NCBI GenBank assembly: GCA_033977485.1
Contig: CM066988.1
Span: 31,058,001 to 31,122,000, forward strand
Direction of reading: 5' to 3'
Length of the DNA: 64,000 nucleotides
Source of the DNA: Hydrangea macrophylla
Taxonomy: Eukaryota > Streptophyta > Magnoliopsida > Cornales > Hydrangeaceae
Numbering within the stretch: position 1 is the first letter of the stretch; the number at the start of each line of letters is the position of its first letter. The notes beneath the pieces were generated by a model. It saw only the letters and a list, made by a program, of their open reading frames with translations. It was not told the origin of the DNA and did no database searches. Positions 10,246-61,882 of the stretch are shown here, piece after piece. The position numbers and the translations under genes are program-made.

Positions 10246-12858
10246 AAGATAACGATAAAAGGAAGTGCTGGGTTTCAAAGAAGACATTTCAAAATTGAAG
10301 CACAGAGTTCGAGCGATCGAAGAAGGCTCGAGCGATCGAGAGTTCGATCGATCGAGAGAAGTTCAAGCGATCGAAGATCCCAGAAGTTCAATCGATCGAG
10401 CGATTTTCAATCAATCGAACATGGCTTTTATCAGATCATACGCGCACGCTGCGGGAACATGGGTTAAAACCCTAGTTGTAGGTTTGTCTATTTATCTCAG
10501 TTGTATTCACGAAAAGGACGACGCCACTTTACTTTTCATCAGTTTTAGAGAGAGAGATAGAGTTTTTCCATGTTTTGTAGGTCTTGGAGCTTGGATATTG
10601 CTTTTGGATTGCTATTCTCATAGTTTAATATAAGTTTTTCCTTTCCAGATTACTCTTTTATTGTTTATTTGTATTCTACACGTATTTTAGAGTAGTGTAA
10701 TCAGTTATCACATAGTTTTGCATGCTAGATAAACTTACACCATTAGTTCTTATAATTTTCAAGATTAAAATGAAACCAAACACATCCATAACGAATATTT
10801 ATGTTAAAAACGACACTGTTATACTCCAGACTATGTCTAAGTAGTCCCCAGGTTGGGAGATCACAATGAAACCGTGATCTCAAGCCTCTGCCATGCAGCA
10901 GAATAATTCCTGTGTTTGATCGATCGAAGATAGTTCGATCGATCGGAACAGAGACATTGTCAATCGATCGAAGTTAGTTCGATCGATCGAGGGAAGAAGA
11001 TATTCGATCGATCGAAAGCGCGTCGATCGATCAAACTCTCTGATTCTTGAGAATATTCTATGCAGTATTCCTGGACTTTCTGCTTTACTGATTTGTTATC
11101 AAATTGTCCCCAAACGCTCAGTTTGTCAAAACAGTCTGTAAACTTAAAGCCTTGATGCATTTTTCTTCAATACATTTTGTTTTAAAATACACGAAATCGG
11201 TTTAAAACAATAGTCAAGATTCGCACCTACAATGGTGTTAGCATTGAGGGTGGTTTGCAAAATGTATTGAAGAAAAATGCATCAAGGCTTTAAGTTTACA
11301 GGCTGTTTTGACAAACTGAGCATTTGGGGACAATTTAATAACAAATCAGTGAAGTAGAAAGTCTAGGAATACTGCATAGAATATTCTCAAGAATCAGAGA
11401 GTTTGATCGATCGACGCGCTTTCGATCGATCGAATATCTTCTTCCCTCGATCGATCGAACTAACTTCGATCGATTGACAATGTCTCTGTTACGATCGATC
11501 GAACTATCTTCGATCGATCAAACACAAGAATTATTCTGCTGCATGGCAGAGGCTTGAGATCACAGTTTCATTGTGATCTCCCAACCTGGGGACTACTTAG
11601 ACATAGTCTGGATTATAACAGTGTCGTTTTTAACGTAAATATTCGTTAAGGATGTGTTTGGTTTAATTTTAATCTTGAAAATTATAAGAACTAATGGTGT
11701 AAGTTTATCTAGCATGCAAAACTATGTGATAACTGATTACACTACTCTAAAATACGTGTAGAATACAAATAAACAATAAAAGAGTAATCTGGAAAGGAAA
11801 AACTTATATTAAACTATGAGAATAGCAATCCAAAAGCAATATCCAAGCTCCAAGACCTACAAAACATGGAAAAACTCTATCTCTCTCTCTCTAAAACTGA
11901 TGAAAAGTAAAGTGGCATCGTCCTTTTTGTGAATACAACTGAGATAAATAGACAAACCTACAGCTAGGGTTTTAACTCATGTTCCCGCAGCGTGCGCGTA
12001 TGATCTGATAAAAGCCATGTTCGATCGATCGAAAATCGCTCGATCGATTGAACTTCTGGGATCTTCGATCGCTTGAACTTCTCTCGATCGATCGAACTCT
12101 TGATCGCTCGAGCCTTCTTCAATCACTCGAACTCTGTGCTTCAATTTTGAAATGTCTTCTTTGAAACCCAGCACTTCCTTTTATCGTTATCTTGGATATT
12201 GATTTTGGATTGCTATTCTCATAGTTTAATATAAGTTCTTCCTTTCCAGATTACTCTTTTATTGTTTATTTGTATTCTACACGTATTTTAGAGTAGTATA
12301 ATCAGTTATCACATAGTTTTGCATGCTAGATAAACTTACACCATTAGTTCTTATAATTTTCAAGATTAAAATGCAACCAAACACATCCTTAACGAATATT
12401 TACGTTAAAAACGACACTGTTATACTCCAGACTATGTCTGAGCAGTCCCCAGGTTGGGAGATCGCAATGAAACCGTGATCTCAAGCCTCTGCCATGCAGC
12501 AGAATAATTTCTGTGTTTGATCGATCGAAGATAGTTCGATCGATCGGAACAGAGACATTGTCAATCGATCAAAGTTAGTTCGATCAATCGAGGGAAGAAG
12601 ATATTCGATCGATCGAAAGCGCGTCTATCGATCAAACTCTCTGATTCTTGAGAATATTCTATGCAGTATTCCTAGAATTTCTACTTTACTGATTTGTTAT
12701 CAAATTGACCCCAAACGCTCAGTTTGTCAAAACAGTTTGTAAACTTAAAGCCTTGATGCATTTTTCTTCAATACATTTTGCAAACCACCCTCAATTGTAA
12801 AACCATTGTAGGTGCGAATCTTGACTATTGTTTTAAACCGATTTCGTGTATTTCAAAC
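10246..12858. repeat. duplication - inverted triplication - duplication in the Athila 5' LTR
   Basis: Arm 1 is 10246-11179; the reverse complement of it is 11258-12193; a direct third copy of its second part is 12191-12780. The 78 bp between the arms (11180-11257) is the reverse complement of 12781-12858, i.e. of the LTR sequence that normally follows arm 1. So the order is A B, then inverted (C B A), then B C. Junction 2 shares CTT and junction 1 shares TTT(G) between the joined sequences. The arms agree at well over 90 percent by eye. Confidence 0.92.
10313..10420. repeat. GATC-palindrome cluster (Athila LTR, first)
   Basis: Repeated GAGCGATCGA, TTCGATCGATCGA and TCAATCGATCGA words. Inverted copy at 12018-12135; homologous cluster in the 3' LTR at 32383-32495. 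Further clusters of the same LTR at 10915-11030, 11403-11515 and 12517-12625. Confidence 0.85.
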
Positions 12859-13300
12859 TTAATTGTGATGACATAGTCCCGGTCATGAAAGGACTATGGA
12901 TTCTTTATCCTAAGAAAAATACGGAATACTGTAGAGAGTGTGCTCCATTGAGCTTCAACGTAACTGCATGGTAGATGGCTTGGTCGCGGTGGATTCGTGT
13001 GATCCCTACATTCCCTTTTATTAAGAGAAACATTTTAAATCATCGCTTTAAATTGTTAGTCGTTAGATTAATTTAGTTTAATTGTCTTGTCTTTAATAGT
13101 TGATAAACCGTGGAACTTCGTGTTCTACATTTCTTTAAAATTTTGATTTTGATTTTTTTTTTAGAGATTAATCTAGGTTTTTAGTTTAACACCTTCCCTG
13201 TGGGATCGACCTAGACTTCCAGTACTATATTACTTGCACGATTAACTACACTTAGGTACAGCACACAAGCGCACACAGAAAAATTCTCGTGTCAAGTTTT

Positions 13301-13318
13301 TGGCGCCGTTGCCGGGGA
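13301..13318 (+). other. Athila primer-binding site
   Basis: TGGCGCCGTTGCCGGGGA, six bases after the LTR end. This is the characteristic site of Athila and related plant gypsy elements, usually assigned to tRNA-Asp. It fixes the LTR edge and the + strand orientation. Confidence 0.93.
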
Positions 13319-13423
13319 AGGCGACAAGCTAACGCTTAGATTGCCTCAATCTATCCTTATCTCTTTCTGTTTTTCTTTTTCTTTCATTCTTTAGATTAAA
13401 AACTACTTAGGGTCTTTCCCTTT

Positions 13424-18998: not shown

Positions 18999-19146
18999 AA
19001 TGCTCAAGTGCGTTTTTACAATGTTGTTGTACTATTTCTTTTACTGCTTTTTATTCTGTTTTCGTTATTTTGCTTATCTATTTTGGGTGCGACCTTGATC
19101 GTAATCTGCTACTCCATTCTTATCTATCTCCTACAGGCTGTTCAAC

Positions 19147-20049: not shown

Positions 20050-20590
20050 TGCTCCACTTCAATTGTATTCCGTCATTTCATCTTTCTTTCATCAATTAAA
20101 GTGTATTCCTAGACAAAGTTTTATTCCTTTCAGTTTCTTTTAGTTTTTCTTTATCAATAAGGTTTTAAATACCATGTTGGGGGCAATACGGCTGCAAATG
20201 GATGCTAGTACTTTGTTCTATCTATAAAATATTTGCAATTCTCTATTTTGATGATGACTTTTTGGCTTACATGTCCTATCAATGAACTATTTTTATCACT
20301 TTTATGTATGTCCAGAACAATATTGGTTAGCTAGGGGTGTATAGTCTTTCATTTCAATACTAGTGTAGGATTTCTAGGTTCGATCGATCGAGCTATCGTC
20401 GATCGATCGAACTCATCCACTCTTCAAGCACTTCAGCAGGTCCTAATCGATCGAAGGTTCGATCGATCGATCGAACTTTCTCGATCAAACTTTCTCGATC
20501 GATCGAGACCTGTATTTAAACGAGGCATCGTCCATACACTTCATCAGTTTCTCTCCCTCTTTCCTTCATTCGAGCGATTGAACACAGAGT
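20050..20590 (+). other. Athila non-coding spacer
   Basis: Spacer between the two downstream ORFs. 20385-20500 holds a cluster of the TTCGATCGATCGA palindrome in tandem, including the run CGATCGATCGATCGA near 20461-20475. An imperfect TATA-like GTATTTAAACGAGG at 20511 and an ATG at 20597 follow, which could be a sub-promoter. Confidence 0.5.
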
Positions 20591-20596
20591 AACACC

Positions 20597-21058
20597 ATGG
20601 GCGATTTTCAATTCCTCAAGCACACACCCATTGGTCGGTGCTCTGATCATTCCTCTGTTCACCATCATCATCCCTCTCATCCACTCTCCATTTTTTTTAC
20701 CCGAGGTAAAGTCCACAAACTCCCCCTCTTAATCATTTCATTGGAATTGTCATGGGGGTGCCCCCCGTTGGTTGTTAAACCATTTATTGTTCATTTTTCT
20801 TTGTATTTTGTGTGTGTGGATCCTCTCTATTCTCGTTTGTTGTCGCTGCGAAATCGCTGTGCTCGATCGATCGAACAAACTTCGATCGATCGAACCCAGC
20901 AATTCGTCGATCGATCAAATAAACTGCGATCGATCGAACCCGATGATTCTTCGATCGATCAAACCAACTGCGATCGATCGAACCTTAATAGTGGACGTTT
21001 TCATTTTTTCCCTTCCTATTTCATTTGTTTTGTTTCTTTTCAATTTCAGGTCGCCCAC
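20597..21058 (+). other. possible first exon and intron of the third Athila ORF
   Basis: ATG 20597 opens MGDFQFLKHTPIGRCSD, ending near CCCGAG|GTAAAG (20703-20708), a good plant 5' splice site. A T-rich tract ends in TTTCAATTTCAG|G at about 21050, a good 3' splice site, and the ATG of the next ORF is at 21059. A GATC-palindrome cluster (20860-20985) lies inside the would-be intron. The spliced frame is not clean, so the use of this exon is uncertain. Confidence 0.4.
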
Positions 21059-23279
21059 TATGAATCCCACGATGGGCTATTTTCAGGAGAAATCCTTCGA
21101 CCTCGCTGTAACAAATCCGGTACTTGACCATGGGTTCCGCCATATCGTTGACCAGTCCAATTACACGAGATTCTTTAGTCACCGTAGGGTGATGATTGAA
21201 AGACCTCTTGAGATGACCTGACTTTCTGCTCCTTGGTTCTTAGCCAGAATCAAGGCTATACCACGATGGTACGAGATGTTGACCCAGCCCAAACAGGTCA
21301 ATGTTTCGTGGGTACGAGAGGTCTGTGCAACGATGATTAAGGACCCGGCTGCACCATACACTTACCGATCTTACTTCCATGGTCGGGAGATCATCATCAG
21401 TCCTGCCACCTTATCTGCTGCCATAAGGGTCCTTGAGGAGCTGGAGTGTGACTGTCCTCACCGTGTGGGTACTCCCGAGATCGCTTACGCCATAATTGTC
21501 AGAGAGATTACAAGTGGTGCCGTTCAGTTCTGGAACGGCTCCTCTCATATAGAGGATCAGTTCCTGACTGATAGGTACCACATGCTCCATCTTGTCCTCT
21601 GTAGACACCCCATTTTGTCGGCTCTCAGATTTAGGAGACCCATAGCTTGGTGGTTCACAATGATCGTAAAAGACTCAAAAGGACTCTCGGAAGTCACCTC
21701 TATCTTTCTGAATGCTCAGAATGACCAAAATGCCCCTAAAAGCCCGAAAACTCCCAGATTTGGTCCCAAAGTTCTAAAAACATGCTACGTCATAAGAAAA
21801 GTGATAAAATGAGTTTTTAAGAAAAATCGGATAAAATCGTCAGCTCCCAGAGACCCACGGAAGTCCCGGAAGTTCCCGAAAAGTCCCCGTTGACCGGTTT
21901 GACCAAGGTTTGACCAGGTTTGACCAAGTTTGACCAAGTTTGACCGAAGTCGTCCAAATTCACCAGAATCATTCTAAATCATGAGAAAAGTATTAAAACA
22001 AGTTCCAAAAGAAAATCGAGCGAAAACGTCAGCTCCCGGGAACTCCCGGAGGTTTCCAGAACTTCCCGGGAATCCCAGGTTTGACCAGTTTGACTAAAAT
22101 TTGACTTTGGAACCAGGGCGCCGAAACAATTTTCAAACATTTTTCATGGATACTAGAGGTCAATAGCTTTCCAACGGTATATCACACATAATTTCTGGAT
22201 TTAAAACGAATTTATTATGAATTTCCAAAGGCGAAAAAGGCGATCAAATCGGCTTTTATCGCGAATACCGCAAAAATTTTCAAAGTGACCTATCCCTGAA
22301 CTATTATTTATGTAAAATAGACTCCATTACCTTTCCAACGGTATATCACAACCTCAGTTTGGAGTTCATACGCATTTTCTGTGAATTTCGGACGAAATAG
22401 GGCCTTTTCGCGAATACCGGAACCTCAAGGGGCCTAAACATCATTATCTGGACGAAGGAGGCGCAGTGTCGCCGCGGTACTGGCCCACTGCCGCCGTGGC
22501 ACTGGCCCAGTGCCGTCGCGGCACTCCCCTCCAGAACAGTGTATTTTTGTAATTTATTTTGGGGGTCCAATTTGATATATTAGAAATCAAAACGACGTAG
22601 TTTTGGTTCCCAGCTTATTTTGGACCAATGGGAGACCATTTTAAACTTTTTAAAACTCCATTTACCACCCCCTCCTTTGCCTATAAAAGAAGCCATTTAC
22701 TTCCATTTAAAGGAGAGACATGGAAGCTTAGAGAGAGCTTAGGAAGAAACTCTAGGGAAATATAGAGAGAGAAAGAGAAGAAGTAGTCTTCTTCTTCCAT
22801 TTTTTCCAATCAAAGTGAGTTCTAATCTTGTTTTCCTCCACCATTCTTCTATATACTTCATCATCAATATACCGAAACACCATTTCTCTAAGCATTTTTG
22901 AGTTAGGAAGCTACTTCCATGTCCAAATGTCTATATCTATGAGTGAAACACCAAGCTACAAGTCTAATATCACATTGATTATCATCTATTGATTTGTTCA
23001 TTTGCTTGCTTATATACAATGATCATCTCTTCTTACCTCATTTCTTTTTGATTTTCTTTATTTACTTACTAGTTCATCATCATCTAGATGATGACATGAA
23101 GTTTGAGGTGAGTGAATCCTTATGGATAGTAGCTCTTGACCTCAAAACCATGTTTAATAGATGATGATTATAACTTCAATACCTCCAAGGTATCTTTGAA
23201 GTTATGTTCAAAATAAAAATGAATCTCTCCAATAATATTGGGAGTTCTTTGATGATTCAAGGTTGGATGAGATTCTAAG

Positions 23280-24643: not shown

Positions 24644-27600
24644 TGTGGACACCGGCATTTTGGGAGGGGGCCCGCCTTTTAGGTTTGAAATTGTTTGATT
24701 TGAAAGGAGAGAGAAAATGGTAGGTCTGTTGAAAATAGATACAGAGTCGCCGCTTGGTCTTTAAGGAACCAAGAAACCTAATTTGACTCACCCAAGCGGA
24801 TAAGGGCATCAGCCCTTCATAACCAAAGAACTTGGTTCGGGGTTTTGGTACGAGAGAGGAAGGAGCCTTTGTCGCGACTAAAACACCCTCAACTCGCCCC
24901 GTCTTTCGACGGGCCTCAATTAGCATCCAAATAATCATCTTATACTATGTATGGTCCGGCAATTAATACTATGATAATATATTACATTACATAAGAAACT
25001 TTGAAAATGGAAGATCTAAAGGTAAGATATCATTCATAAGATCTAAGCCAAATATCATAGAATGTAAAGTGAAAGATCACACAAACAAACCTAGGAAAAA
25101 TCGTCTAATCATGTATCAAATAATCAAGATTTCCTAATCTAGAGGGGGACATGAATTGTTATTGAAACAAATAAACCAAGGAATTAAAATATGCTTAGCA
25201 AGCTAGTATGATGCATGTTAATTTTGAGAAAAGAAGATTTCTCAATCTCCGGGACCAATGAGAAAGGACGATTAGATCGAGAGGAAGCATGAACGTGTGA
25301 TCAAGATCATTCCTTATAATCTTCTTAGATTAGGAGTTGCAAAAACCCCAAATCTTGCATGAATGCAATGCATGTATCTAAAATGTGCCAAGGTTGTAGT
25401 GTGCTTTGTGTTCATGGATTCCTAGAATGACTTAGAAGTCTAAAATGTGTATGAATGGATGAATGAAATCAACATGGGATATGTACAAATGTATTATGAA
25501 CTACTTCCTAAGATATGAACTAATGTGGAATGCATATGAGCATCAAATCAAAGAATGAAAGTTGAAATATGCTTGCTGTGAATAGTGGACAGAACAGTAG
25601 CATGATCTTTTGGAATTTGAAAAGAGGGGTTAGGAATGTTTTCAATGCATGATTTTTTATGGAGATGTTCCTTATTGTGTCTAGAACACAACCCAAAAGG
25701 CCAATCTTGAATATCTATCACAGATTGAGAGAAATCATATAAACAATGAAGGTCACTCAGAAACAGAGTCCGTACCGTCGACTGAAATGTTGAAAAATCT
25801 TAGAAAATGAAAACTAATGATCTAGAGGCCTATTTTATACAGAACGTGTCCTAAGACATTGAAGTTTAAGGGAAAAATAAGTTAGGACCACCCTTTTTGG
25901 AAAAGGTTTCTGAAAAAGAGGTTGGAAGTGGACCTAGCTGCTGTGACAGCAAAAACAGAATGTCTGGAAGGAATGTTTGGGTCCAAATGGACCATTTCCA
26001 TGTACTTTCAAGTCAAACCAAAAATCGTGGGTGTTCTCCAATGGGTTAGGAAGACTTTCCAAGTGGCCTTGCATCCATATGTTGAGTATTGAGTTCTAGA
26101 GAAATCTTTGAACTCAACTCACTCACTGTTTTGACTCATTATTTTGAAGATTTTGGGGAAAACAAGGTTTTGTTTCTTGAAACCAAAATGAGAAGGATTG
26201 AGTGGGGTTTTGAAATAGATGTTTTGAAAACATATTTTTAATACTCAATGAGGATTATAGCCACTTAAAATGTCAACATCAAACTCATCATCAAGAACCT
26301 CCAAGATTGTTGGAGAGATTTATTTTTATTTTTGAACATAACTTCAATACATTTCAAGAATACCTTGGAAGTATTGAGGTTATGATCATCATCTATCAAA
26401 CATGTTTTTGAGGTCAAGAGCTACTATCCATAAGGATTCACTCACCCCAAACTTCATATCATCACTTAGATGATGATGAACTAATAAGTAAATAAAGAAA
26501 ATAAAAAAGAAATGAGATAAGAAGAGATGAACAATAAATAAACAAGCAAGTAGATGATGATCAATATATGATATTCATGAAGCATGAGACTTGTAGATTG
26601 GTGTTTCACTCATATGTAATGACACTAGACATGGAAGAAGCTTCCACTCTCTTGAATGCTCACTAAAATGGTGGTTGGGAGCATTGAATGTTGAAGTAAA
26701 TGGGAGTAATGAAGTAAAAACAAAGTTTAGAACTCACTTTTGTTTTGAAAAATCAAAGAAGGAAGCTTCTTTCTCTCTATTCTAACCTTATCTCTACAAC
26801 TTTCTCTCCCAAACTTTTCCTAAACTTTTATTTCACCCCCCTAAAATGAAGAGCAATGGGGTGTTTATATAGGCCAACTTGGGGGTGGTTTTGGGATTTA
26901 GAAAGTATTCCCATTGGCTCCAAATATCTGAAATCATAAAGCTATGTCGTTTTGGCTTTTAATTAATCAAAATGGGACCACAAAACTATTTACAAAAATA
27001 TACTGCTCTGGAGGGGAGTGTCGCGGCGGCACTGGGCCAGTACCGCGGCAGCAGTGGGCCAGTGCCGCGGCGGCAGTGCTCCTCCTTCGTCCAGATAATG
27101 TTGTTTAGGCCCCCTGAAGTTTCGGTATTCGCAAAAAGGCCCTATTTCGTCCGAAATTCACAGAAAATGCATACGAACTTCAAATTGAGGTTGTGATATA
27201 CCGTTGGAAAGGTAATGGAGTCTACTTTACATAAAAAATAGTTCGAGGATAGGTCACTTTGAAAAGTTTTGCGGTATTCGCGATAAAAGCCAATTTGATC
27301 GCCTTTTTCGCCTTTGGAAATTCATAATAAATTCGTTTTAAATCCAGAAATTATGTGTGATATATCGTTGGAAAGCTATTGACCTCTAGTATCCATGAAA
27401 AATGTTTGAAAATTGTTTCGGCACCCCGGTTCCAAAGTCAAATTTTGGTCAAACTGGTCAAACTTGGGATTCCCGGGAAGTTCTGGAAACCTCCGGGAGT
27501 TCCCGGGAGTTGATGTTTTCGCTCAATTTTCTTTTGGAACTTGTTTTAACACTTTTCTCATGATTTAAAAATGATTCTGGCAAATTCGGACGATTTTGGT

Positions 27601-27955
27601 CAAACTTGGTCAAACCTGGTCAAACCTTGGTCAAACCTAGTCAAACCTTGGTCAAACCGATCAACGGGGACTTTCTGGGAGCTTCCGGGACTTCCGGGGG
27701 TCTCTGGGAGCTGACGATTTCACCCGATTTCTCCTACAAACTCATTTTATCACTTTTCTTATGACATAGCATGTTTTCAGAACTTTGGGACCAAATCTGG
27801 GAGTTTTCGGGCCTTCAAGGGCATTTTGGTCATTCTGAGCATTCTGAGAGATAGAACTGACTTCCGAGAATCCTTTTGAGTCTTTTTACGATCATTGTGA
27901 ACCACCAAGCTATGGGTCTCCTAAATCTGATAGCCGACAAAATGGGGTGTCTACA
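24644..27955 (-). mobile_element. TatB-family solo LTR (inner), reverse orientation
   Basis: On the + strand it begins TGTGGACACCGGCATTTTG and ends AAATGGGGTGTCTACA, flanked by AGTAC at 24639-24643 and 27956-27960. It is 3312 bp, the same size as the 5394-8660 LTR. It reads as its reverse complement from end to end with no internal region, so it is a solo LTR. TATA box on the - strand near 26862-26872. Confidence 0.95.
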
Positions 27956-32129: not shown

Positions 32130-32812
32130 TGACAAGCGAGGGTATTTGTAAAATACAACCGCGCTAAAAGAAGAAAATGTACTAATTTAGTTTACAATTC
32201 CCTTGTTTAGCTACAGTTTGAATTATAATTCCAATTTTCACACATTGTGATTAACCTGTGATAAGTTGTGTGTTTTAGCTGCAATTTATGCAGATTACCG
32301 TTGCTGTGTGGAGAATTGGAAGATAACGATAAAAGGAAGTGCTGGGTTTCAAAGAAGACATTTCAAAACTGAAGCACAGAGTTCGAGCGATCGAAGAAGG
32401 CTCGAGCGATCGAGAGTTTGATCGATCGAGAGAAGTTCAAGCGATCGAAGATCCCAGAAGTTCAATCGATCGAGCGATTTTCGATTGATCGAACATGGCT
32501 TTTATCAGATCATACGCGCATGCTGCGGGAACATGGTTAAAACCCTAGCTTTAGGTTTGTCTATTTATATCAGTTGTATTCACGAAAAGGACGATGCCCA
32601 CTTTACTTTTCATCAATTTTAGAGAGAGAGATAGAGTTTTTCCATGTTTTATAGGTCTTGGAGCTTGGATATTGCTTTTGGATTGCTATTCTCATAGTTT
32701 AATATAAGTTTTTCCTTTCCAGGTTACTCTTTTATTGTTTATTTGTATTCTGCACGTATTTTAGAGTAGTGTAATTAGTTATCACATAGTTTTGTATGCT
32801 AGATAAACTTAT
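32130..32812 (+). repeat. 3' LTR of Athila, truncated
   Basis: Begins TGACAAGCGAGGGTATTTG and is collinear with 10056-10738 of the 5' LTR, including the GATC-palindrome cluster at 32383-32495. It has no inverted block, but it ends at GCTAGATAAACTTA before the position where the inverted copy would begin, so it cannot show whether the rearrangement was in both LTRs. The next base belongs to TatA. Confidence 0.92.
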
Positions 32813-38155: not shown

Positions 38156-39630
38156 TGTTGGTAAAATTAGGTTTAAAAAACTTAATTATATGCGCAGCGG
38201 AAAGACAAAGTTTAAAACTTTTTGGTATGCCCAAAACTACCACTTATCAATTCCGTAGATGCATAAAACAAGAGGGAGAAGAGTTTATACCTAACGGTCT
38301 TGAACCTAATTCTGATTCTCTTCTTCCTAGATGTTGCAATAGACTCCACTAGATAGTCTTCACTCCTATGTCTCCTTTGAACACTTCCAGAGAGGCTAGA
38401 GATGGTGGCATCTCTAATAGGGAGAATAGAAAAGGTTTGAGAAACCCTTAAACAGTTTCTGTAGTTGGAATAAAGAAACATCAATTAAAATAATTCTGCA
38501 TGCACCTGCCCTATTTATAGATTCCCAAATATACTTTTACATTCAATCAATCGAAATTGTTTCGATCAATCAAAGCTTTTCGATCAATCGAAGCTTTTCG
38601 ATCGATCGATCAAACCTGCCTTGACTTTAATCGATCGAAACTCTTTCAATCGATCGAACCTATCTTGACAAGATCTTCATGTGCCTTTCCAAGCATCCTG
38701 GTGGAGCTAAGAGTGGGACCTCCTAGGTTCTCTATTGTTGGCTCAAACTAGTTGTTAATTACCATGACCAAACTCTTTGATCAGCAAATTAACCAACTGA
38801 TCAGTTAACATTTACTCCACTATAAAACGATAACTAAACTCCAACGCAAAACAACAAATTCAATGCGATGTCTAGACTTGTATGGTGTACTAATGTCCCT
38901 TTACATTCAACATTCATAATCATATTCAAGTAGTCGGATAAACTATTACTATCAATTTGAATAATGATTACACCTTCCACTCCTTGAGCCCCATTCACCC
39001 CTCATGATTACCAAATATGTTGATAACTCTTATCAACAATACTGTAGTTCTCAGTAATCAACTTGGTGACATTCTCAAGGGAATGCTTACTCTTGATTAG
39101 AGGATAGATTCTATATTGACAATACATGGTCACAACCTTATGAACATGACATACCCAAGATACCCAGGTGTTGAACTTTTACAGACCTCACTGATTGGTA
39201 AATCAAAGCAGCCACATCCACAGCTTGTGTCCATAATTGTCTCAAGATTAAGAACATGTACCTTATACAAGTTATGAGTTCCTATCGACTGTTGACAGTC
39301 TTAAGTGTCAATAGGAGAACTCAGGACTGTCAATGCACTATAAGCACTAGCATATTAACTAAGAGTTATACTCCAGTGATTGAGATTCATCACTCTATCC
39401 AATGGTAGTTAATCATGTTATAATGTACACAGATATCTCATCATCGACTATGAAAAATTTATCTCACTTGTATATATCTCATATACACACGAATTACTTA
39501 CTATGATACTTAAGGATCAACAATCATCTTATGAAAGAAATATACATAATGAAATGTAAAGCTGATATCCATATATTAAAATGCCAATGTCTCATACATA
39601 AAGTAATGGTTTGAGGGTACAAGCCCAATA
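38156..39630 (-). mobile_element. copia-type solo LTR (1475 bp)
   Basis: + strand start TGTTGGTAAAATTAGG, + strand end AAGCCCAATA, a decayed TGTTGG/CCAACA inverted repeat. Flanked by ATTAC at 38151-38155 and 39631-39635. In the reverse reading the start 'TATTGGGCTTGTACCCTCAA' and the end '..CCGCTGCGCATATAATTAAG..ACCAACA' resemble LTRs of plant copia elements. No internal coding region, so solo. It carries a GATC-palindrome cluster (38545-38660). Family call is by pattern only. Confidence 0.85.
38545..38660. repeat. GATC-palindrome cluster in the copia-type solo LTR
   Basis: Words such as TTTCGATCAATC, TTTTCGATCGATCGATC, TTAATCGATCGAAAC and TTCAATCGATCGAACC, five or six within 115 bp. Same core as in the Athila and Tekay LTRs. 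Confidence 0.85.
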
Positions 39631-39635
39631 ATTAC

Positions 39636-39753
39636 AGGGTTTGGTATGGTACATGGACATGCTTTTTGTACCCGCAGGTACGTTCTATGGAATGGAAGTC
39701 CTCTACAAGGGTGGTCTGGTAATGTTGCAGGCTTTGGCTTTCGTCCGCCCAAG
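39636..39753 (-). other. TatA leader, part 2
   Basis: 118 bp of TatA leader between the solo LTR and element B. Its last five bases, CCAAG (39749-39753), are duplicated at 46204-46208 on the far side of element B. Confidence 0.7.
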
Positions 39754-41202
39754 TGACCTGAATAAAATACTGTGCGCTCTTGTGTGCAACACCCACATGT
39801 AGGTGATCGTGCAAGTAATGTAGTACTAGAAATCCAGTTTGATCCCACGAGGAAGGAATAGATTATTAAGATGTTTGCATCCAAATTACTTCCTAAAAAA
39901 ATGAAAGGAAAAGATGATTTAAAGTAGAGGGAAGTTATTACCCAGATACAGCCTAATTAGATTAACTAATTTAATCTGAAGCATAATTAAAGCAATTCAA
40001 ACTAACAAGTTACGAAAGTGTTAGGGTTACGTGAATCCACATTAATTCCATCCACAACTATGCTTGAGAAAAGATATGGCATCCTAAACAATCCAAAACA
40101 AGTCTCCTTAAGTGTAAGTTTCATTAAAGTTGTAAAACATCCTATAGTCGACATAAAGATGTGAAAGGACTTCAATTAGTCCTTTTTGTCAAGTCCGAGC
40201 AGAATTTTTATGAGTACAAATTATCGATTTTATCCAACAAAACATTTAAAGAAACTGACAGATGAGGTGTTGATTATATCTATGAGAGGTATTCACAAAA
40301 CCTTAATTGAAATCTAAGTTAAAATCTCCAATATCAAGTTAAATAATATTATTCATATTAGAAAACTTGAGACCAGTAAATCTCGACTTGGATCACAAAT
40401 AAAACTTTGAATTATAATGTTGCCCAATTAAGAATATACATGGAAGTTGATTTTATTAATGCTTTATTATATAATCCTAACTAAATATCTACTCTAACAT
40501 ACTAATATTAAAATCAAAGCAATATAATAAAGTAAACATATTAATTAAACTAAAAACATTTAAATAAAGAGAAGGAATAATAGAACCTGAATTAAATCGT
40601 AGCTTAGAATTGAAATTGCGATAAAAAAGTTGATGTTTACTTCATTACATTCATAAATCCTAGCTATGGTGTATAAAAGAGAAAGAGAGGGAGGAAACTA
40701 ATCTAATCTACTCTATCCCTACTCCTACTCCTAAACTATCCTAACCGTAAAATATAATAAAAGTTATTAATTTTCATTCATAAACATGCATATAGAAGTA
40801 GTAGATAGGGTAGGCTTTTTATTTTTGTGCTAGACTTTTCACTACTTTTGACAGCTTTGCGCACTAATGGGAAAATTGGAATATCTCTCTGCTCGGACCT
40901 CAGATTGATGCATGGTTTTTGGCCAAATTCAAAATTCCATGTTCTTTAATGTCAAAAACACCCTTTTTCCAGCTGCTGTTGTTATTCACCTACTAATTTC
41001 TTAGTTTTCTAGCATTATTTCAACTCCATTTTGTCCAAGCAAAATGTAGCCTGAAAAAACACATAAATACACACATTTCAATGAATTCTTAACAAATTCA
41101 CATTAATAATAAAATATGTGTAAAACTAAGGAATTGGGGATTAAAGTATGCATAAATAACCATAAAAACGTGCTATGAATATGCAATATTTAGCTCTAAT
41201 CA
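39754..41202 (-). repeat. 3' LTR of element B (1449 bp)
   Basis: + strand start TGACCTGAATAAAATACTG, + strand end TTTAGCTCTAATCA. From about 39867 it is collinear with 44836-46203. The first about 115 bp resemble the end of the Athila LTR ('TGTGCGC..TTGTGTGC', 'ATCGTGCAAGTA', 'GATCCCAC.AGGAAGG') in a shortened form. Confidence 0.9.
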
Positions 41203-44401: not shown

Positions 44402-46203
44402 TGACACGAAAATTCTTCTGTGCGCTTGTGTGCTATACCCAAGTGTAAGTAATCGTGCAAGTAGTAGTCTGGTTAAGTCCAGGTCGATCCCACAGGGAAG
44501 GTGTTAAACTAATTACTCAGATTAGTCTCAAACAAGAAAATAAAAATCAAGATTCTAAAAGAGTGTAGAACACAAAGTTCCATAATTTATCAACTACTAA
44601 AGATTTAAACTAAATTAAACTAATTACTAACTAATTAATTAAAGCAATGATTTAAAACGTGTCTTTCTTACTAAAAAGGAATGTTGGGATTACACGAATC
44701 CACCGCGACCTAGCCATCTGCCATGCAGTTGCATTGAAGCTCAATGGAGCACACTCTCCACAGTATTCCGTATTTCTCTTAGGATAAAAAATCTATAGTC
44801 CTTTCATAACTGGGACCATATCATCACAATTAAGATGTTTTTATCTAAATTACTTCCTAAAAAAATGAAAGGAAAATATGATTTAAAGTAGAGGGAAGTT
44901 ATTACCTAAATGTAGCCTAATTAAATTAACAAAATTAATCCAAAGCATAATTAAAGCAATTTTAACAAGTTACTAAAGAATTAGGATTATGTGAACCCAC
45001 ATTAATTTCATCCACAACCATGCTTGAGAAAAGATATGGCATCCTAAACAATCTAAAACAAGCCTCCTTAAGTGTAAGTTTCATTAAAGTTGTATAACAC
45101 CCTATAGTCAACATAAAGATGTGAAACAACTTCAATTAGTTCCTTTTATCAAGTCCGGGCAGAATGCTTATAAGTACAAATCATCGATTTTATCCAACAA
45201 AACATTTATAGAAATCGATAGATGAGGTGTCGATTATATCTATGAGAGGTATTCACAAAACCTTACTTGAAATCCAAGTTAAAATCTCCAATATCAAGCT
45301 AAATAACATTATTCGTATCAGAAAACTTGAGACTAGTAAATCTTGGCTTAGATCATAAAATAGCTTTGAATTATAAGGTTTTCCAATTAAGAACATACAT
45401 GGAAGTTGATTATATTAGTGCTTCATTACATAATCCTAACTAAAATTCTACTCTAACATACTAATATTGAAATCGAAACAATGTAATAAAGCAAACATAT
45501 TAATTAAACTAAAAACATATAAATAAAGAGAAGGAACAATAGAACCCGAATTAAATCGTAGCTTGGAATTGAAATTGAGAAGAAAAATTGATGTTTACTT
45601 CAATACATTCATAAATCCTAACTATGGTGTATAAAAGAGAAAGAGGGGAAGGAAACTAATCTAATCTACCCTACTCCTACTCCTAAACTATCCTAACCTC
45701 TAAATATAATAAAAGTTGCTAATTTTTGTTCATAAATATATATATATATATATACATATATAAATAGTAGATGGGTTGGGCTTTTTATTTTCACGATGGG
45801 CTTTTCGTTGCTTTTGACAGTTTTGCGCACCAATGGGAGATTTGGCATATCTCTCTGTTCGGACCTCGGATCGCCGCACAGTTTGCAGCCATGCGTCTAA
45901 AACACATCGAGCTACAACTTCTATCTCTGGACCAAATTCAAAATTTCAAGTTCTTCAGTGTCAAAATCACCCTTTTTCCAGCTGTTGCTGTTATTCGCCT
46001 ACTTAGTTCTTAGCTTTCGTGCATTATTTCAACTCCATTTTTGCTATAGCCTGTAAAAAACACATAAATACACACATTTCAATGGCTTCTTAAGAAATTC
46101 ACATTAATAATGAAAAATGTGTAAAACTATGGAATTTGGGATTAAAGTACGCAAAAATAGGCAATGAAACGTGCTATGAATGTGTAATATTTAGCTTTAA
46201 TCT
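44402..46203 (-). repeat. 5' LTR of element B, chimeric (1802 bp)
   Basis: 44402-44835 matches the reverse complement of the Athila LTR end (12845-13294) closely, starting TGACACGAAAATTC. From about 44836 it matches the element B 3' LTR (39867-41202). The change occurs at the shared word ATTAAGATG (44829-44837 and about 39864-39872). The 3' LTR lacks about 300 bp of the Athila-like part. The outer end reads TTTAATCT followed by CCAAG. Confidence 0.82.
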
Positions 46204-48900: not shown

Positions 48901-49019
48901 TGTAATACTTGCTATTTTTATTATATGTTTGTACTTTTGTAGTCTCGAGATATATAAATAAGATCCAGTGTGGTTATAGTTATCTTCCTGTATTTTCCCT
49001 TTCAATTTATTGAACTTTT

Positions 49020-49740
49020 CTCAAGCGATCGAACTTGTGCTTCTTTAATCGATCAAACCTTCCTCAATCGATCGAAAAGTTGCTAACCTGAATTCATATG
49101 TGGCCCCATTTCAATCGATCGAACTCACTTTTGATTGATCGAACATGACTGAGCTTGGTTTCCAAGTTTATTTTGTGTGGTTGAGCCTTTCCCTCTTCCT
49201 CTATATATATCATATATACATACCCATGGGTTTGGTTTTGGCTTTGGAGAGAGTCTAGAGAGAGAGATATCTACAATCGATATATATATATACATATACA
49301 AAAACACTCCCTCACACACTCTCGGCCAATACAAAGAAGAAGACAAGAGGAAAGAGGAGAGAAAGAGAAGATAAGAGAAAGGAAAGAGAAGAGAGAGACC
49401 ACCCTTAGAGGATCCACGACCACCCCGAGCTCGTCAGCATCGTTGAACTTTACAGTGAGTGCCTATACTCACTTAGCAGCATAGATATATTTGTATATAT
49501 GTGTTTCGGCAAGAAATAATGAATCCTAAACATGCGAGGAAGGTCCAATGTAGTCTGAGAAGAAAACCACTTCTTAATCAATCAAACTGGTTTTGATCGA
49601 TTGAACATAGACCGATTTCAATTGATCGAACGTTCTTTAATTGATTGAACTTTATTTTTGTGAATCGATCAAACTCTACTTCAATCGATCGAACTTAACC
49701 TTACCTCAATCTATTAAAATGACTTCAATCGATTGAACAT
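49020..49740. repeat. GATC-palindrome clusters in the TekA LTR
   Basis: Words such as AAGCGATCGAACTT, TCAATCGATCGAAAAG, TTCAATCGATCGAACTC, TTTGATTGATCGAAC and TTCAATCGATCGAACTTAA, in two groups (49020-49145, 49575-49740). Many have a TGA or TTG change of the core. Confidence 0.82.
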
Positions 49741-50107: not shown

Positions 50108-50370
50108 GTTATGGGACAGGTTGGCCAGAATGTATTAAGGGACAGGTTGGCCAGAATGTATCAAAGGGGTATAAGGGACAGAATATATCAAAGGGCGTGT
50201 TGGCTGGAATGAATCAGGGTGTGTTGGTCGGAATGAATTAAGGCGTGTTGGATGGAATGAATCAGGGCATGTTGGCCATAATGTATCAGGCGTGTTGGCC
50301 ATAACGTATCGGGCATATTGGCCAAGCATGTTGGTCGAAATGTATAGGGCGTGTTGGCCAGAAGGTGTCA
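50108..50370 (+). repeat. minisatellite, core GTGTTGGCCAGAATGTATCAGGGC
   Basis: About ten imperfect copies of a 26-28 bp unit, e.g. GGGACAGGTTGGCCAGAATG, GGGCGTGTTGGCTGGAATGA, GGCATGTTGGCCATAATGTA. It lies inside the TekA LTR. Open frames on both strands over it are repeat artefacts. Confidence 0.85.
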
Positions 50371-53048: not shown

Positions 53049-53051
53049 GTA

Positions 53052-53068
53052 TGGCGACTCTGCTAGGA
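53052..53068 (+). other. primer-binding site of TatC
   Basis: TGGCGACTCTGCTAGGA, three bases after the LTR end CCACA. Marks the start of the internal region of a + strand Tat-lineage element. Confidence 0.82.
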
Positions 53069-57299: not shown

Positions 57300-58090
57300 A
57301 TCTGCATTAGTCCTCAATGGCATCATCTTTGCATTCGTGTTAGTCCTCAATGGCAACAACTTTTCATTACGTTAGTCCTCAATGGCAACATCTTTTCATC
57401 ACATTAGTCCTCAATGGTAGCATCATTACATTCGCATTAGTCCTCAAAGTGAGCATCTTTGCATTCGCATTAGTTCTCAGTGGTAGCATCCGTGCATTCG
57501 CATTAGTCCTCAATGGCAGCTGCATTCGCATTAGCCCTCAATGGTAGAATCTTTGCATTCGCATTAGTCCTCAATGGCAGCGTCGTTGCATTCACATTAG
57601 TCCTCAGTGATGACCTATTTACATTGCATTAGTCCTCAATGGTAACATCTCAACATTCGCATTTCTCCTCAATGGCGGCATCCTTCATCGTGTTAGTCCT
57701 CAATGGCAGCATCTCTGCATTTGTGTTAGTCCTCAATGGTGGCATCCTTCATCGCATTAGTCCTCAATGGCAGCCTCTCTATATTCACATTAGTACTCAA
57801 TGGCGGCATTCTTCATCGCATTAGTCCTCAATGGCAGCATCTCTGCATTGGCTTCAGTCCTCAATGGTGGCATCCATTGTGTTAGTCATCAATGGCAGAT
57901 CTCTGCATTCACATTAGTCCTCAATGGTAGTATCTTTGCATTTGCGTTAGTCCTCAACGACATTTTCTTTGCATCTGAGTTAGTCGTCAATCTACATCCT
58001 CCTTGTACTGTGCTAATCCTCAATAGCAACCTATTTATACTGCATTAGTCCTCAATGGAAACCTTTTATTCCGTAAATTCTCAATGGCAC
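57300..58090 (+). repeat. 33-bp minisatellite, core GCATTAGTCCTCAATGGCAG
   Basis: About 22-24 units of 32-33 bp, core TTAGTCCTCAATGGCAGCAT followed by CTTTGCATTCGCA. Because most units are 33 bp the frame stays open in stretches (57350-57547, 57639-57824, 57800-58048) and gives an 11-residue repeat LVLNGSIFAFA or ISPQWQ in the next frame. No stop-free reading crosses the whole array, so coding is unlikely. Part of the TatC leader. Confidence 0.9.
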
Positions 58091-58254
58091 CTACTCTCAG
58101 CATTCAGTTTCTAGTTATGGATTCACTCAATTCTCAGGATCAGTCTTGGCCTCTGCTTATCATCAAAGAAAATCCCTCAGCTTTTGCTTATCGTCATAGA
58201 TGATTCTTCAGTCTCAACCTCTGCTTATTGTCAAAGATGATCTCTTAGCCTCGG

Positions 58255-58620
58255 TCTCTGCAAATTGTCTCAACCTCTACATATCATCTCTGCCTCTGTA
58301 AATTGCCTCTGCAAATTATCTCAGCCTCTGCAAATTATCTTTGTCTCCACAAATTGTCTTCACTTTTGTAAATTCTCTCTGGCTATGAAAATTCTCCATG
58401 TCTCTATAAATTGTCTCTGCCTCCATAAATTATCCTTGCTTATACAATTCTCCATGTCTCTGCAAATTATCTGTGTCTATAAAAATCATCTCTGCAAATT
58501 GTCTCTGTTTTCTTTAAATTAGCCTTTGCAAGTATCTCTACGCTTTACAAATCCTTTAGGCTCTCTGCAAATTGTCTCCACAAATTGTCTTCATTCCCCC
58601 GTAAATTGTCTCAAAGAACA
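58255..58620 (+). repeat. short-unit array, core TCTCTGCAAATTGTC
   Basis: About eighteen imperfect copies of an 18-20 bp unit (CTCTGCAAATTATCT, TCCACAAATTGTCT, TCTATAAATTGTC). It follows the 33-bp array after about 165 bp that hold a further 'TCAGCCTCTGCTTATCGTCA' repeat (58140-58260). Confidence 0.82.
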
Positions 58621-59349
58621 TAGACACCCTCTACTTCCGTAGATCACCTAAAGATAAAGAAGTTATGATAAAAATGCATTGAAAACATCGTAAGTGAAAG
58701 AGTGACGTCACATTTTCATCCTAATCACCAGAGGGTCTCTGAAGAGATTCTTCATTCACTTTTGCATCCTTGCATTTGCATTTGCATTGACTAGATTTCA
58801 GGTCTTTGCATCCTTACGATTATCTGCATAATTTCCTATGTTCAAACTATGCACTAGTCCCGAAAAGGATATGTAGGCAGTTCCCCTGTGAACGTGGCCA
58901 GTACTGGCCTTAGCTTTACTCTTTGCAAACTTATTGATTTTATCTTATTTTCTCTTCTTTTTGGGGCATTTTTTATTTTTCTAAAACCTTTGAGCGTGGT
59001 CATAGCTTTGGCACTCACTTGCAGTATGCTTTGCTCCGCAATGAAAGTTTGGACTTCAAAAAGTGTTCTTGTACTATGCTTTGCTCCACAACGAAGTTCA
59101 AACTCACTTATAGTACGCTTTTTGAGCCTATATTCGTGTTTTTCTCAAAATTAATTTTCAAAATGTGCATTTGATATAGGGAAAATGTTTATTAAGGTTT
59201 CAGGCCTGAAATTTTAGGGGAATACTTGAAACACACAAGTAATAATAATAATGAATAATACATAAAATAAAAATAAAAGTTCAAGTAGTGGACCCCACAA
59301 GCAGGTGGCGGCTCCCATGAGGGCCACCACCCTCTAACGAAGGCCACCA
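58621..59349 (+). other. TatC leader end and unassigned sequence
   Basis: Contains GGATATGTAGGCAGTTC (58868), a phrase typical of Tat leaders, and two versions of ACTATGCTTTGCTCC.CAA (about 59025, 59073). The frame 58888-59154 has a hydrophobic stretch but no known domain. From about 59165 no family can be named. Confidence 0.4.
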
Positions 59350-59575
59350 CTTGATATTTTCCACTATATATGTATATACACATATGTTTTAAAAGTGAGC
59401 TTCCTAAGTTTTACAACTTGATATTTTCTCCTATATATGTATGTAAACATGTGTGGTAAAAGTGAACTTCCTAGATATTTTCTACACCCCATCTAATTAC
59501 AATTCTACCCACTTGAAATTTTATCCTATATATGTATACAAGCATGTGTGTTAAAAGTGAGCTTCCTATATGTTT
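59350..59575 (+). repeat. three copies of a 60-bp unit
   Basis: 'CTTGATATTTTC.CCTATATATGTATRT', then 'CATGTGTGDTAAAAGTGARCTTCCTA', at about 59350, 59416 and 59511. The spacing is 66 and 95 bp. It may be promoter-proximal repeats of an LTR. Confidence 0.75.
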
Positions 59576-59639
59576 CCTATGCCCCCTCTAATACCATTTT
59601 ACCCTTTTAAAAGCTTGAAAATCCATCAATATCCTTCAA

Positions 59640-59830
59640 TCTTTGCCTATAAATTAGACCCTTGGGTTCACTCTTTGAAGGGACTTGAAAGCACACTAAG
59701 TATACTTGAGAGATATACTAGCATACTTGAGATTTGAGATTATGGTTAATCATGCTGGTAGTGCCTCTACATCGAAGAACCTCTTAGGTAAAGACTTTTA
59801 TGCCTCAGGAGGAGACACAAATTTGTAACC
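59640..59830 (+). promoter_or_regulatory. possible promoter and leader of copia C2
   Basis: CTATAAATTA at 59648 resembles a TATA box; an ATG at 59741 opens MVNHAGSASTSKNLLGK, a short gag-like start, before the frame runs into RT sequence. This suggests a deletion that joins the element's 5' part to RT. Weak: no LTR edge or primer site was found. Confidence 0.35.
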
Positions 59831-59839
59831 TTGATGAGG

Positions 59840-60970
59840 ATGTCTACATGTCTTTACTACCTACTTTCGGCAAAAAGGAAGAGACACGAGTTTGCAAACT
59901 CCACAAATCATTGTACGGTCTCAAATAAGCTTCCCGTCAATTTTTATCAATCTTTCATCATCTGTCAAACAAGATAGATACCAACAATCCAAAGTAGATT
60001 ATTCACTGTTCGTCCAATCCCAAGATGATAAATTCACGGCTCTTCTCGTTTATGTAGACGATGTTATTTTGGCAAGAAATGACCTACAAAACATTGAAAA
60101 CACCAAGTTATTTAAATTAAAAGATCTTGGACAAATAAAATACTTCCTAGGTATAGAAGTTGTTCAGTGTAATAAGGATATTATACTCTTCCAACGGAAA
60201 TATGCCCTTGAAATCCTTAAAGATGCTGCTATCTTGGTGCAAAGCTGGTATCTTTTCCTATTCTATCTCTCAGCAAATCTAATGGTCATTACATTAGTGA
60301 CCCCTCTTTGTATCGAAGGCTTGTTGGATGACTAATTTACTTAATCATCACACGGTCTGACTTGGTATATGTTGTTCATACTATAAGCTAATTCATAGAC
60401 AAGCCACAAGGTCCACACTTAGAAGCAGCTCATCGTGTCTTACAGTATGTTAAGCACACACTGGGTCAAGGAATTTTCCTTTCTGGAAGTATTCCGATCC
60501 AATTAAATGCCTTCTACGATGCAAATTGGGCTCGATGTCGTGACACTCGATGATCCATTATTGGATATTGATTATTTCTTGGCAAATTGCTAGTTTCCTG
60601 GAAAACCAAGAAGCAAACTACAATGTCACAATCCAGTGCCAAAGATGAATATCAATCTATGGCTATAACATCTTATGAGATTACTTAGTTGAAATACATT
60701 TTGCATGCTTTGGGCATCAAAACACCCTATAAAGTTGTATTGTGATAATCAAGCGGCTCTCCACAATGCTTCAAATCCAGTTTTCCACGAGTGAACTAAG
60801 CACATAGAGATCAATTATCACCTTATAAGAGAAAAGATTCAAGAAAGAATCATCAAAATAGCTCACAAATCCACATCACATCAACTAGCCGATATCTACA
60901 CTAAATCATTGAGCTCCTCATAGTTCACGACTTTACTTGGAAAGTTAGGGGTTATTAACATACATTCCAA
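59840..60970 (+). pseudogene. copia reverse transcriptase end and RNase H (element C2)
   Basis: Frame pieces in order: NLDEDVYMSLLPTFG, then KLHKSLYGLK, stop; after a frameshift VDYSLFVQSQDDKFTALLVY and VDDVILARNDLQNI with the intact YVDD box (about 60050); LKDLGQIKYFLGIEV; RSDLVYVVHTI; EAAHRVLQYVKHTLGQGIFL; LNAFYDANWARCRDTR (RNase H Asp); SAKDEYQSMAI; LHALGI; then HIEINYHLIREKIQ, KSTSHQLADIYTKSLSS. All is typical copia. At least ten stops or shifts. Everything before RT is missing. Confidence 0.9.
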
Positions 60971-61006
60971 CTTGAGGGGGAGTATTAAGGAAAGTAAAGT
61001 CAATTA
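60971..61006 (+). repeat. polypurine tract and start of C2 3' LTR
   Basis: CTTGAGGGGGAG (60971-60982) is the standard copia polypurine tract; TATTAAGGAAAG (from 60983, expected TG start) begins the LTR, which is cut after 24 bp by the Tekay-like LTR at 61007. Confidence 0.82.
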
Positions 61007-61438
61007 TGTCATGCCCCAGAGTAGTAAAAATAGAGAAAAATAAATTTCCTTTTTATGTCCATAGGGAATGATCGGTGAATGTCACTAATTGTCTACACCA
61101 TATAGTACTAGTCCAACTAAAAGCAACAAGAATAGTAAACAAACTGAATATAATAACAATTCTATCCATTATAATATCAAAGTGGTCCTCATTTAACATC
61201 CAAATACTTGTAAAACATTAAACTAATGCTACCAAGTGAGTTTAGAATTCACCAAAAGACCGTAAGGGCGTGTTTGGCAAGGTTTGAAGCTCCAAACTTC
61301 TCCAATGGCCTCTTTTCCCTTCTCCTCTGTCTCTGCCTTCTCTTTCTCTACCTCTATCTCCTTCTTCTTCTTCTTCTTCACTTTCTCATCTGTCTGTCTC
61401 TCTCACACTGTATATATATAGATATGTGTGTATGTATC

Positions 61439-61469
<31 letters not shown>

Positions 61470-61882
61470 ATATATATGACCACAGTTCTCTCTCTCTCCA
61501 ACTCCCAAGGCTATCAACAACCTCCCACAATTGATATGGGTTTGTACATATAGGGGAGAGGAGTGGGTAGGTGGCAATGTTTCCGTGATCTGAGATAAAA
61601 TATTCAGACGAGTTCGGTCGATTGAAGGTTCTTCAATTGCTTAAGAGCAGATCGGTCAGGTTCGATCGATTGAGATCAATTTGATCAATTAAAATGGGGT
61701 TCATGTCATAAATTCATGTCGGCAGGGTTTCGATAGATTGAATAGGGTTCGATTGCTTGAACTTAGAAATTCTCGATCACTTAAAAGGACTTCAATCGAT
61801 TGAAAGTTAAAATTACGTATGGTCAAGGGAAGTATATAGAATCTCTTCGTGTTAGTAAAATACTAAAAATGCAGGCATTACA
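61007..61882 (-). repeat. 3' LTR of Tekay-like element TekB (876 bp)
   Basis: + strand start TGTCATGCCCC, + strand end GCAGGCATTACA. On its own strand it begins TGTAATGCCTGC, like TekA. Left flank AATTA (61002-61006) is the candidate target duplication. It holds a (TA)n tract (about 61438-61480), CT-rich sequence and a GATC-palindrome group (61610-61805, e.g. GTTCGATCGATTGAG, TTCAATCGATTGAAAG). Confidence 0.85.
61610..61805. repeat. GATC-palindrome cluster in the TekB LTR
   Basis: About eight words around TTCGATCGATTGA, many decayed to TTGATCAATTAAA or TTCGATTGCTTGAAC. Weaker than in Athila but in the same spacing style. Confidence 0.7.

What the first reader, a model, noticed from the sequence alone, without database searches (positions are those of the whole stretch)
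10313..61805. The palindromic motif TTCGATCGATCGAA is shared by LTRs of unrelated retrotransposon families
Clusters occur in the Athila LTRs (10313-10420, 10915-11030, 11403-11515, 12018-12135, 12517-12625, 32383-32495), in Athila internal DNA (20385-20500, 20860-20985), in a copia-type solo LTR (38545-38660) and in two Tekay-like LTRs (49020-49145, 49575-49740, 61610-61805). They do not appear in the TatA, TatB or copia C1 LTRs. The flanking sequences are unrelated, so common descent of the LTRs does not explain it. Options: a spreading simple repeat, a binding site acquired by several families (enhancer or silencer hijacking), or gene conversion. Decayed copies still keep the TTCnATCGATCGAAC frame.
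Basis: partly seen in the sequence, partly recalled or inferred. Interest (0 to 1): 0.78.

Follow-up and report, generated by a model that had tools for sequence, protein, structure and literature searches.

The report
Shared paired-palindrome arrays in plant retrotransposon promoters
Different families of plant jumping genes in this stretch carry the same short palindromic DNA box, set in pairs at a fixed distance near their likely promoters, which suggests that they tap one common DNA-binding protein; the layout resembles boxes already described in another retrotransposon group.

Summary
The 14-bp palindrome has 60 matches (<=2 mismatches) against 0.12 expected; 59 of 60 lie in the reported clusters, one between two of them. 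Corrections: the six Athila LTR clusters are copies of two arrays, because the 5' LTR holds an inverted duplication, so eight arrays are distinct. Exact copies occur only in Athila; the shared consensus is TTYRATCGATYRAA.

Boxes come in pairs exactly 19 bp apart: 18 of 40 adjacent spacings against 2.3 expected, with at least one pair in each of eight arrays, while the 5-bp gaps are unrelated between arrays (27% identical). And five of the eight arrays end 6-137 bp before a TATA-like sequence on the sense strand, one of them inside Athila before a 3' ORF; the other three lie 350-430 bp after it.

Best reading: arrays of sites for one DNA-binding factor, gained or kept by several lineages. Sirevirus 'RM boxes' (PMC2829016) already show palindromic CpG boxes upstream of TATA and of ENV, so this is a new variant of a known kind. 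Function is inferred; the host genome could not be searched.

The parts
10308..10419 (+). Array A1, Athila 5' LTR, upstream of TATTTAT at 10489; six sites spaced 19,16,19,25,19
10915..11035 (+). Array A2, Athila LTR, about 430 bp downstream of the TATA-like sequence; six sites spaced 19,25,19,25,19
11402..11522 (-). Copy of A2 in the inverted duplication of the 5' LTR
12020..12131 (-). Copy of A1 in the inverted duplication of the 5' LTR
12516..12636 (+). Third copy of A2, right part of the 5' LTR
32382..32493 (+). A1 in the Athila 3' LTR (matches the 5' LTR over 32130-32811), TATTTATA at 32562
20379..20507 (+). Array B1 inside Athila, downstream of the integrase, ending 6 bp before TATTTAA at 20513; one further site at 20569-20582
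20513..20520 (+). TATA-like sequence of a proposed internal promoter for the Athila 3' ORFs (ATG at 20597 or 21060)
   Evidence: function inferred
20862..20982 (+). Array B2, about 350 bp downstream of that TATA-like sequence; six sites spaced 19,25,19,25,19; lies inside the open frame 20597-21127, so it may be coding
38542..38658 (-). Array C in an LTR-like segment (about 38159-39641 by eye, TG...CA ends); TATAAAT at 38519-38513 on the minus strand, 23 bp after the array on the sense strand
49001..49143 (+). Array T1 in a Tekay-type 3' LTR that starts near 48903 (by eye), TATATAT at 49202
49573..49737 (+). Array T2, same LTR, downstream of the TATA-like sequence; spacings 19,25,19,24,20,44
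61613..61804 (-). Array U in a second, divergent Tekay-like LTR on the minus strand; TA repeat beginning 137 bp after the array on the sense strand

Best explanation
The clusters are cis-regulatory arrays. The unit is a pair of 14-bp palindromes (consensus TTYRATCGATYRAA, each suited to a symmetric protein dimer) with a 5-bp gap, 19 bp start to start, repeated mostly every 44 bp in A2, B2 and T2. Arrays sit upstream of TATA-like sequences in LTRs and before a proposed internal Athila promoter, with a second array 350-430 bp downstream in three promoters. I propose that one host DNA-binding factor binds the pairs cooperatively and activates, or keeps open, these promoters, and that Athila, Tekay and probably a third lineage gained or kept the sites independently. 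Shown: sites, pairing, spacing, position, CpG content, decay pattern. Inferred: protein binding, cooperativity, activation, internal promoter, independent gain.
For: 60 matches vs 0.12 expected. 18 of 40 adjacent spacings are exactly 19 bp vs mean 2.3, max 10 in 20,000 random placements; 8 of 8 arrays have such a pair vs 2.1 expected, and no placement reached 8. The 5-bp gaps are 27% identical between arrays (140 comparisons) and 42% within (13 comparisons). Five of eight arrays end 6, 23, 59, 70 and 137 bp before a TATA-like sequence on the sense strand; of random positions 8-9% have one within 70 bp and 15-17% within 140 bp. CpG observed/expected is 1.5-3.2 in the 12 clusters vs 0.52 in the rest of the window. 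At CpG positions 61 of 288 letters changed, 58 of them C>T or G>A; at the other positions 31 of 384, and at the four inner ones 6 of 192 (48 sites). Six other repeat segments have no site with <=3 mismatches.
Against: No binding, expression or methylation data. One or a few copies per family in one 64-kb window; no family consensus LTRs. Tandem duplication copies spacings, so the 40 are not independent (the array-level count is safer). The TATA-like pattern was chosen after seeing the sequences; U's is only a TA repeat. B1 has one 19-bp pair. B2 lies inside an open frame of 176 aa and may be coding. Local CpG o/e beside the Athila arrays is also raised (0.6-1.1), though those flanks partly include neighbouring arrays. 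No known factor was matched to the motif.
Confidence: 0.55

Rival explanations
1. TE-encoded anti-silencing target: the arrays are bound by a protein encoded by one of the elements (for example an Athila 3' ORF), which removes silencing in the manner of VANC on VANDAL elements, and other families ride along.
For: Arrays of short motifs in non-coding regions that grow by tandem duplication are what VANC targets look like (PMC5735166, passages). B1 and B2 flank the start of the 3' ORF region. The decay pattern suggests that the sites get methylated.
Against: No VANC-like protein was seen among the 23 pieces scanned against Pfam; one 3' ORF piece gives only a sub-threshold PF20167 hit (34.8 bits, cut-off 45). 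In that paper the VANC21 motif was rare outside its own family, whereas here the motif is shared.
Confidence: 0.12
2. Neutral minisatellite: a 44-bp repeat containing two ATCG-rich segments spread among LTRs by recombination, without function.
For: TRF finds 44-bp units in A2 and B2; sites resemble short (ATCG)n runs; units within an array resemble each other in the gaps (42%).
Against: Gaps are unrelated between arrays though the spacing is kept; position near TATA-like sequences; no excess of sites elsewhere in the window; C and U lack a 44-bp period but keep 19-bp pairs.
Confidence: 0.18
3. Hairpin element: each 19-bp pair forms a 14-bp stem with a 5-nt loop in RNA, or a cruciform in DNA, and the structure is what matters.
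For: Any two adjacent copies of a palindrome can pair (direct reading of the pairs).
Against: No compensation: pairing (G-U allowed) within the 18 real pairs averages 11.78 of 14, in swapped pairs 11.84.
Confidence: 0.05
4. Heat-shock-type elements (GAA/TTC units), as in ONSEN and other COPIA families.
For: Sites begin with TTC and end with GAA; COPIA families gained heat elements in a species-specific way (PMC5059998, passages).
Against: Start-to-start distances are 11 bp inside a site and 8 bp across the 5-bp gap, not multiples of 5 (direct reading; the 5-bp phase rule is recalled). Weak gap or step types are not excluded.
Confidence: 0.04

Closest known systems
Sirevirus repeated motif (RM) boxes (Bousios et al. 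2010, PMC2829016; section 9 and passages seen)
   Same: Palindromic boxes in many copies, forming CpG islands, upstream of TATA in the LTR, with extra copies upstream of the ENV gene. Tnd-1's box ACAATCGATTGT shares the 10-bp core CAATCGATTG with the consensus here.
   Different: Described there as Sirevirus-specific (Ty1/copia) with, Tnd-1 apart, a CGG-CCG core. Here the boxes are in Athila-type and Tekay-like Ty3/gypsy elements and a third LTR-like segment, one motif is common to unrelated families, boxes are paired at 19 bp, and further arrays lie downstream of the TATA-like sequence.
VANC target motif arrays of VANDAL elements (PMC5735166, passages seen)
   Same: Short motif arrays in non-coding TE regions that evolve by tandem duplication.
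   Different: DNA transposons; the VANC21 motif YAGTATTAY is not palindromic and is rare outside its family; bound by a TE-encoded protein, none shown here.
Heat-responsive elements of ONSEN and other Brassicaceae COPIA families (PMC5059998, passages seen)
   Same: Gain of one factor's sites in LTRs of several families, in ONSEN by duplication.
   Different: Motif and phase differ; only COPIA families in that study.
Del (Tekay) LTR CpG islands (PMC4029996, passages seen)
   Same: CpG-rich variable stretch in the 5' half of many Del LTRs.
   Different: None in the eudicot group of that study, and no motif named in the passages I saw.

Membership tests
Sirevirus RM boxes | Palindromic motif in many copies in the LTR | tested here: met
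Sirevirus RM boxes | Clusters upstream of the TATA box | tested here: met
   5 of 8 distinct arrays, with a TATA-like pattern chosen afterwards; the other three lie downstream
Sirevirus RM boxes | Extra copies upstream of an ENV-like ORF | tested here: inconclusive
   B1 precedes the Athila 3' ORFs, whose identity is weak
Sirevirus RM boxes | CGG-CCG core | tested here: not met
   consensus TTYRATCGATYRAA; Tnd-1 is the exception in the paper too
Sirevirus RM boxes | Host element is a Sirevirus | tested here: not met
   gag, RNase H and integrase domains of Ty3/gypsy type in the Athila element; PF24626 beside the T LTR; C not determined
VANC-type anti-silencing target | TE-encoded binding protein | not testable with these tools
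   no VANC-like family among 23 pieces scanned; binding needs an experiment
Heat-shock element | Adjacent nGAAn units in 5-bp phase (3P/4P types) | tested here: not met
   start distances 8 and 11 bp, direct reading of the pairs; rule recalled
Athila element (10056-32811) | Ty3/gypsy gag and pol domains in order | tested here: met
   (gag, RNase H, integrase; protease and RT core not hit in the pieces scanned); the 120 best-listed integrase relatives of 7742 are 42-67% identical, from plants where an organism is named
Athila element (10056-32811) | Athila-type primer binding site after the 5' LTR | tested here: inconclusive
   TGGCGCCGTTGCCGGGGA at 13301 agrees with the Athila type as I recall it
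Tekay/Del chromovirus LTR (T, U) | 3' end of a chromovirus pol just upstream of the LTR | tested here: inconclusive
   T: PF24626, E 2.2e-12; U: similar residues by eye, no Pfam hit in two pieces; the lineage name rests on recall

The most novel reading that the evidence does not exclude
A shared regulatory code: one factor recognises palindrome pairs 19 bp apart, and unrelated LTR lineages (Athila, Tekay, probably a third) converged on it, Athila using it twice, for the LTR and for an internal promoter of its 3' ORFs; if an Athila ORF itself encodes the factor, the other families are parasites of its anti-silencing activity.
Probability: 0.1. Interest if true: 0.85.

Novelty: new variant of a known kind. 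Interest (0 to 1): 0.5.

Why it matters
If the pairs are binding sites, one factor could coordinate several retrotransposon families in a plant genome, and the sequence gives a ready bait to find it. It would extend the Sirevirus box idea to Ty3/gypsy elements, give a concrete candidate for an internal promoter of an Athila 3' ORF (an internal promoter was only hypothesised for the Sirevirus ENV in PMC2829016), and offer a case of convergent promoter evolution with a measurable signature: 19-bp pairing with unrelated gaps.

Tried and rejected
Hairpin or cruciform reading: pairing inside real pairs compared with swapped pairs; no difference. Leader-intron reading for the downstream arrays: in B three acceptor-like sequences (21050 the best) but no donor scoring >=7 of 9; in T one donor of 7 of 9 and no acceptor; in A neither; background 1.5 donors and 2.2 acceptors per kb; dropped. 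Heat-shock element: phase not met. Homology of flanks between lineages: none beyond short weak hits. RNA families: 0 matches in the window at gathering score.

Relatives elsewhere: a degenerate pair pattern in viral contigs gave 6 loci, L001-L006. L001 is one continuous ATCG run, L006 a shorter run with one more site close by, L002 has three isolated sites, L004 and L005 one site each with an ATCG-type match nearby, L003 none at <=2 mismatches; none has an array like those here. A stricter pattern in genome contigs (bacteria and archaea) gave 0. Neither collection is expected to hold plant genomes.

Literature: exact strings gave 3, 2 and 17 papers (some repeated). I looked at passages of two of them: PMC3553004, where a primer for a banana satellite holds AATCGATCGAACC, and PMC10211496, an artificial example; the others I saw as listings only. 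In the listings I noticed no title or abstract start reporting this motif as shared between LTR families; most of those papers were not opened and most subscription papers are not in the library. I also saw passages of PMC7264820, which did not bear on the motif.

Rows set aside: the site at 20569 is in the counts (49 sites, 41 spacings) but left out (48 sites, 40 spacings). 23 sites in duplicate Athila arrays and 7 scattered sites were left out of both.
Full report
What is there. The window is plant DNA packed with LTR retrotransposon sequence. The palindrome TTCGATCGATCGAA has 60 matches with at most two mismatches; 100 shuffles give 0.12 on average and never more than 2. A looser CpG-aware scan gives 79 sites, 72 in or beside arrays and 7 scattered; a Markov control gives 10.4 for the whole window.

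How many independent cases. The 5' LTR of the Athila-type element carries an inverted duplication: 10246-12193 matches itself in reverse at 95%, and 10590-11179 returns at 12191-12780. The six LTR clusters are therefore three copies each of two arrays, A1 and A2. With B1 and B2 (inside Athila), C (minus strand, LTR-like), T1 and T2 (one Tekay-type LTR) and U (a second one, minus strand) there are eight distinct arrays in five promoter regions, from two lineages with coding support and a third (C) without. Of the 60 matches 41 belong to these eight. The perfect 14-mer occurs five times, all in Athila; elsewhere the form is TTYRATCGATYRAA.

Identity of the hosts. The 10-32 kb element has gag, RNase H and integrase domains of Ty3/gypsy type in the pieces scanned. 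Its integrase piece is 42-67% identical to the best 120 of 7742 relatives, of plant origin where an organism is named. The primer site at 13301 agrees with Athila as I recall it. Upstream of the T LTR lies a chromovirus-type SH3 domain (PF24626, E 2.2e-12); U has similar residues by eye but no Pfam hit. C has TG...CA ends, but its copia assignment was not confirmed.

Pairing. Adjacent spacings are A1 19,16,19,25,19; A2 19,25,19,25,19; B1 19,44,16,36,75; B2 19,25,19,25,19; C 19,18,18,29,19; T1 19,24,19,47,20; T2 19,25,19,24,20,44; U 48,19,49,19,43. Leaving out the isolated site at 20569, 18 of 40 are exactly 19 bp against a mean of 2.3 and a maximum of 10 in 20,000 random placements; all eight arrays have at least one, against 2.1 expected. 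Duplication within arrays makes the spacings non-independent, so the array-level count is the safer one. The 5-bp gaps are 27% identical between arrays and 42% within, so each array seems to have grown locally while the spacing rule is common.

Position. On the sense strand a TATA-like sequence starts 70 bp (A1), 6 bp (B1), 23 bp (C), 59 bp (T1) and 137 bp (U) after the array. Random positions have one within 70 bp in 8-9% and within 140 bp in 15-17% of cases. The pattern was chosen after I had seen the sequences, and U's is a TA repeat. A2, B2 and T2 lie about 350-430 bp downstream of it. B1 stands before open frames starting with ATG at 20597 and at 21060; a piece further on (21222-21809) weakly resembles PF20167, below its cut-off. 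I read this as an internal promoter for the Athila 3' ORFs; that is inference. Against a purely regulatory role of B2, the 176-aa frame from 20597 runs through it.

Composition and decay. CpG observed/expected is 1.5-3.2 in the clusters and 0.52 in the rest of the window; beside the Athila arrays it is 0.6-1.1, in part because those flanks contain other arrays. Over 48 sites, 61 of 288 letters at CpG positions changed, 58 of them C>T or G>A, as expected from methylated CpG; at the other positions 31 of 384 changed, and at the four inner ones (A5, T6, A9, T10) 6 of 192. The central CpG is kept best (6 and 7 changes against 8-20 at the outer positions).

What was tested against it. Hairpin pairing shows no compensation (11.78 vs 11.84 of 14). 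Flanks share nothing convincing between lineages. Two LTRs of a second Athila-like group and four Tat-type segments have no site with up to 3 mismatches, although two CpG-free weak matches lie in Tat-type DNA. A common leader intron around the downstream arrays was not supported.

Comparison with known systems. Sirevirus RM boxes (PMC2829016, section 9 and passages) are palindromic boxes that form CpG islands, clustered upstream of TATA and upstream of ENV. Their function is also untested in that paper. The Tnd-1 box ACAATCGATTGT shares CAATCGATTG with the consensus here. The paper calls the boxes Sirevirus-specific; here a like system sits in Ty3/gypsy elements, and one motif is common to unrelated families. 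VANC targets (PMC5735166, passages) and heat elements gained in COPIA LTRs (PMC5059998, passages) show two ways in which such arrays can arise and work.

Verdict. A real, strongly non-random, shared array system near likely promoters, most probably binding sites for one factor (0.55). Kind known, variant new. The main limit is that one window with one or few copies per family was all that could be examined: the host genome search did not complete.

Noticed in passing
10246-12193: Inverted duplication (95%) within the Athila 5' LTR, with a third, direct copy to the right; possibly a reverse-transcription template-switch product.
   Followed up: partly
5692-5731, 21890-21945, 27596-27658: Tat-type segments carry their own short tandem boxes, GGTTTGACC (partly palindromic), with CGGTTTGACC once in each array; they recall the CGGTCTGACCG box of Sirevirus Osr10.
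   Followed up: partly
39765-41201 and 44402-46202: A second Athila-like LTR pair; the end of one copy (44402-44834) matches 12858-13294 of the first Athila at 84%, but the pair lacks the arrays: U3 turnover within Athila. The 39765 limit is by eye.
   Followed up: partly
57304-57957: Tandem array of about 33-bp units (GCATTAGTCCTCAATGG...), about 20 copies.
   Followed up: no
50109-50324: Tandem 24-26 bp repeats (GTTGGCCAGAATG...) to the right of array T2.
   Followed up: no
4487-4583: A tRNA-Gln-like prediction on the minus strand, 97 bases long.
   Followed up: no
PMC3553004: A primer for the banana satellite CL33 contains AATCGATCGAACC, a fragment of the motif.
   Followed up: partly
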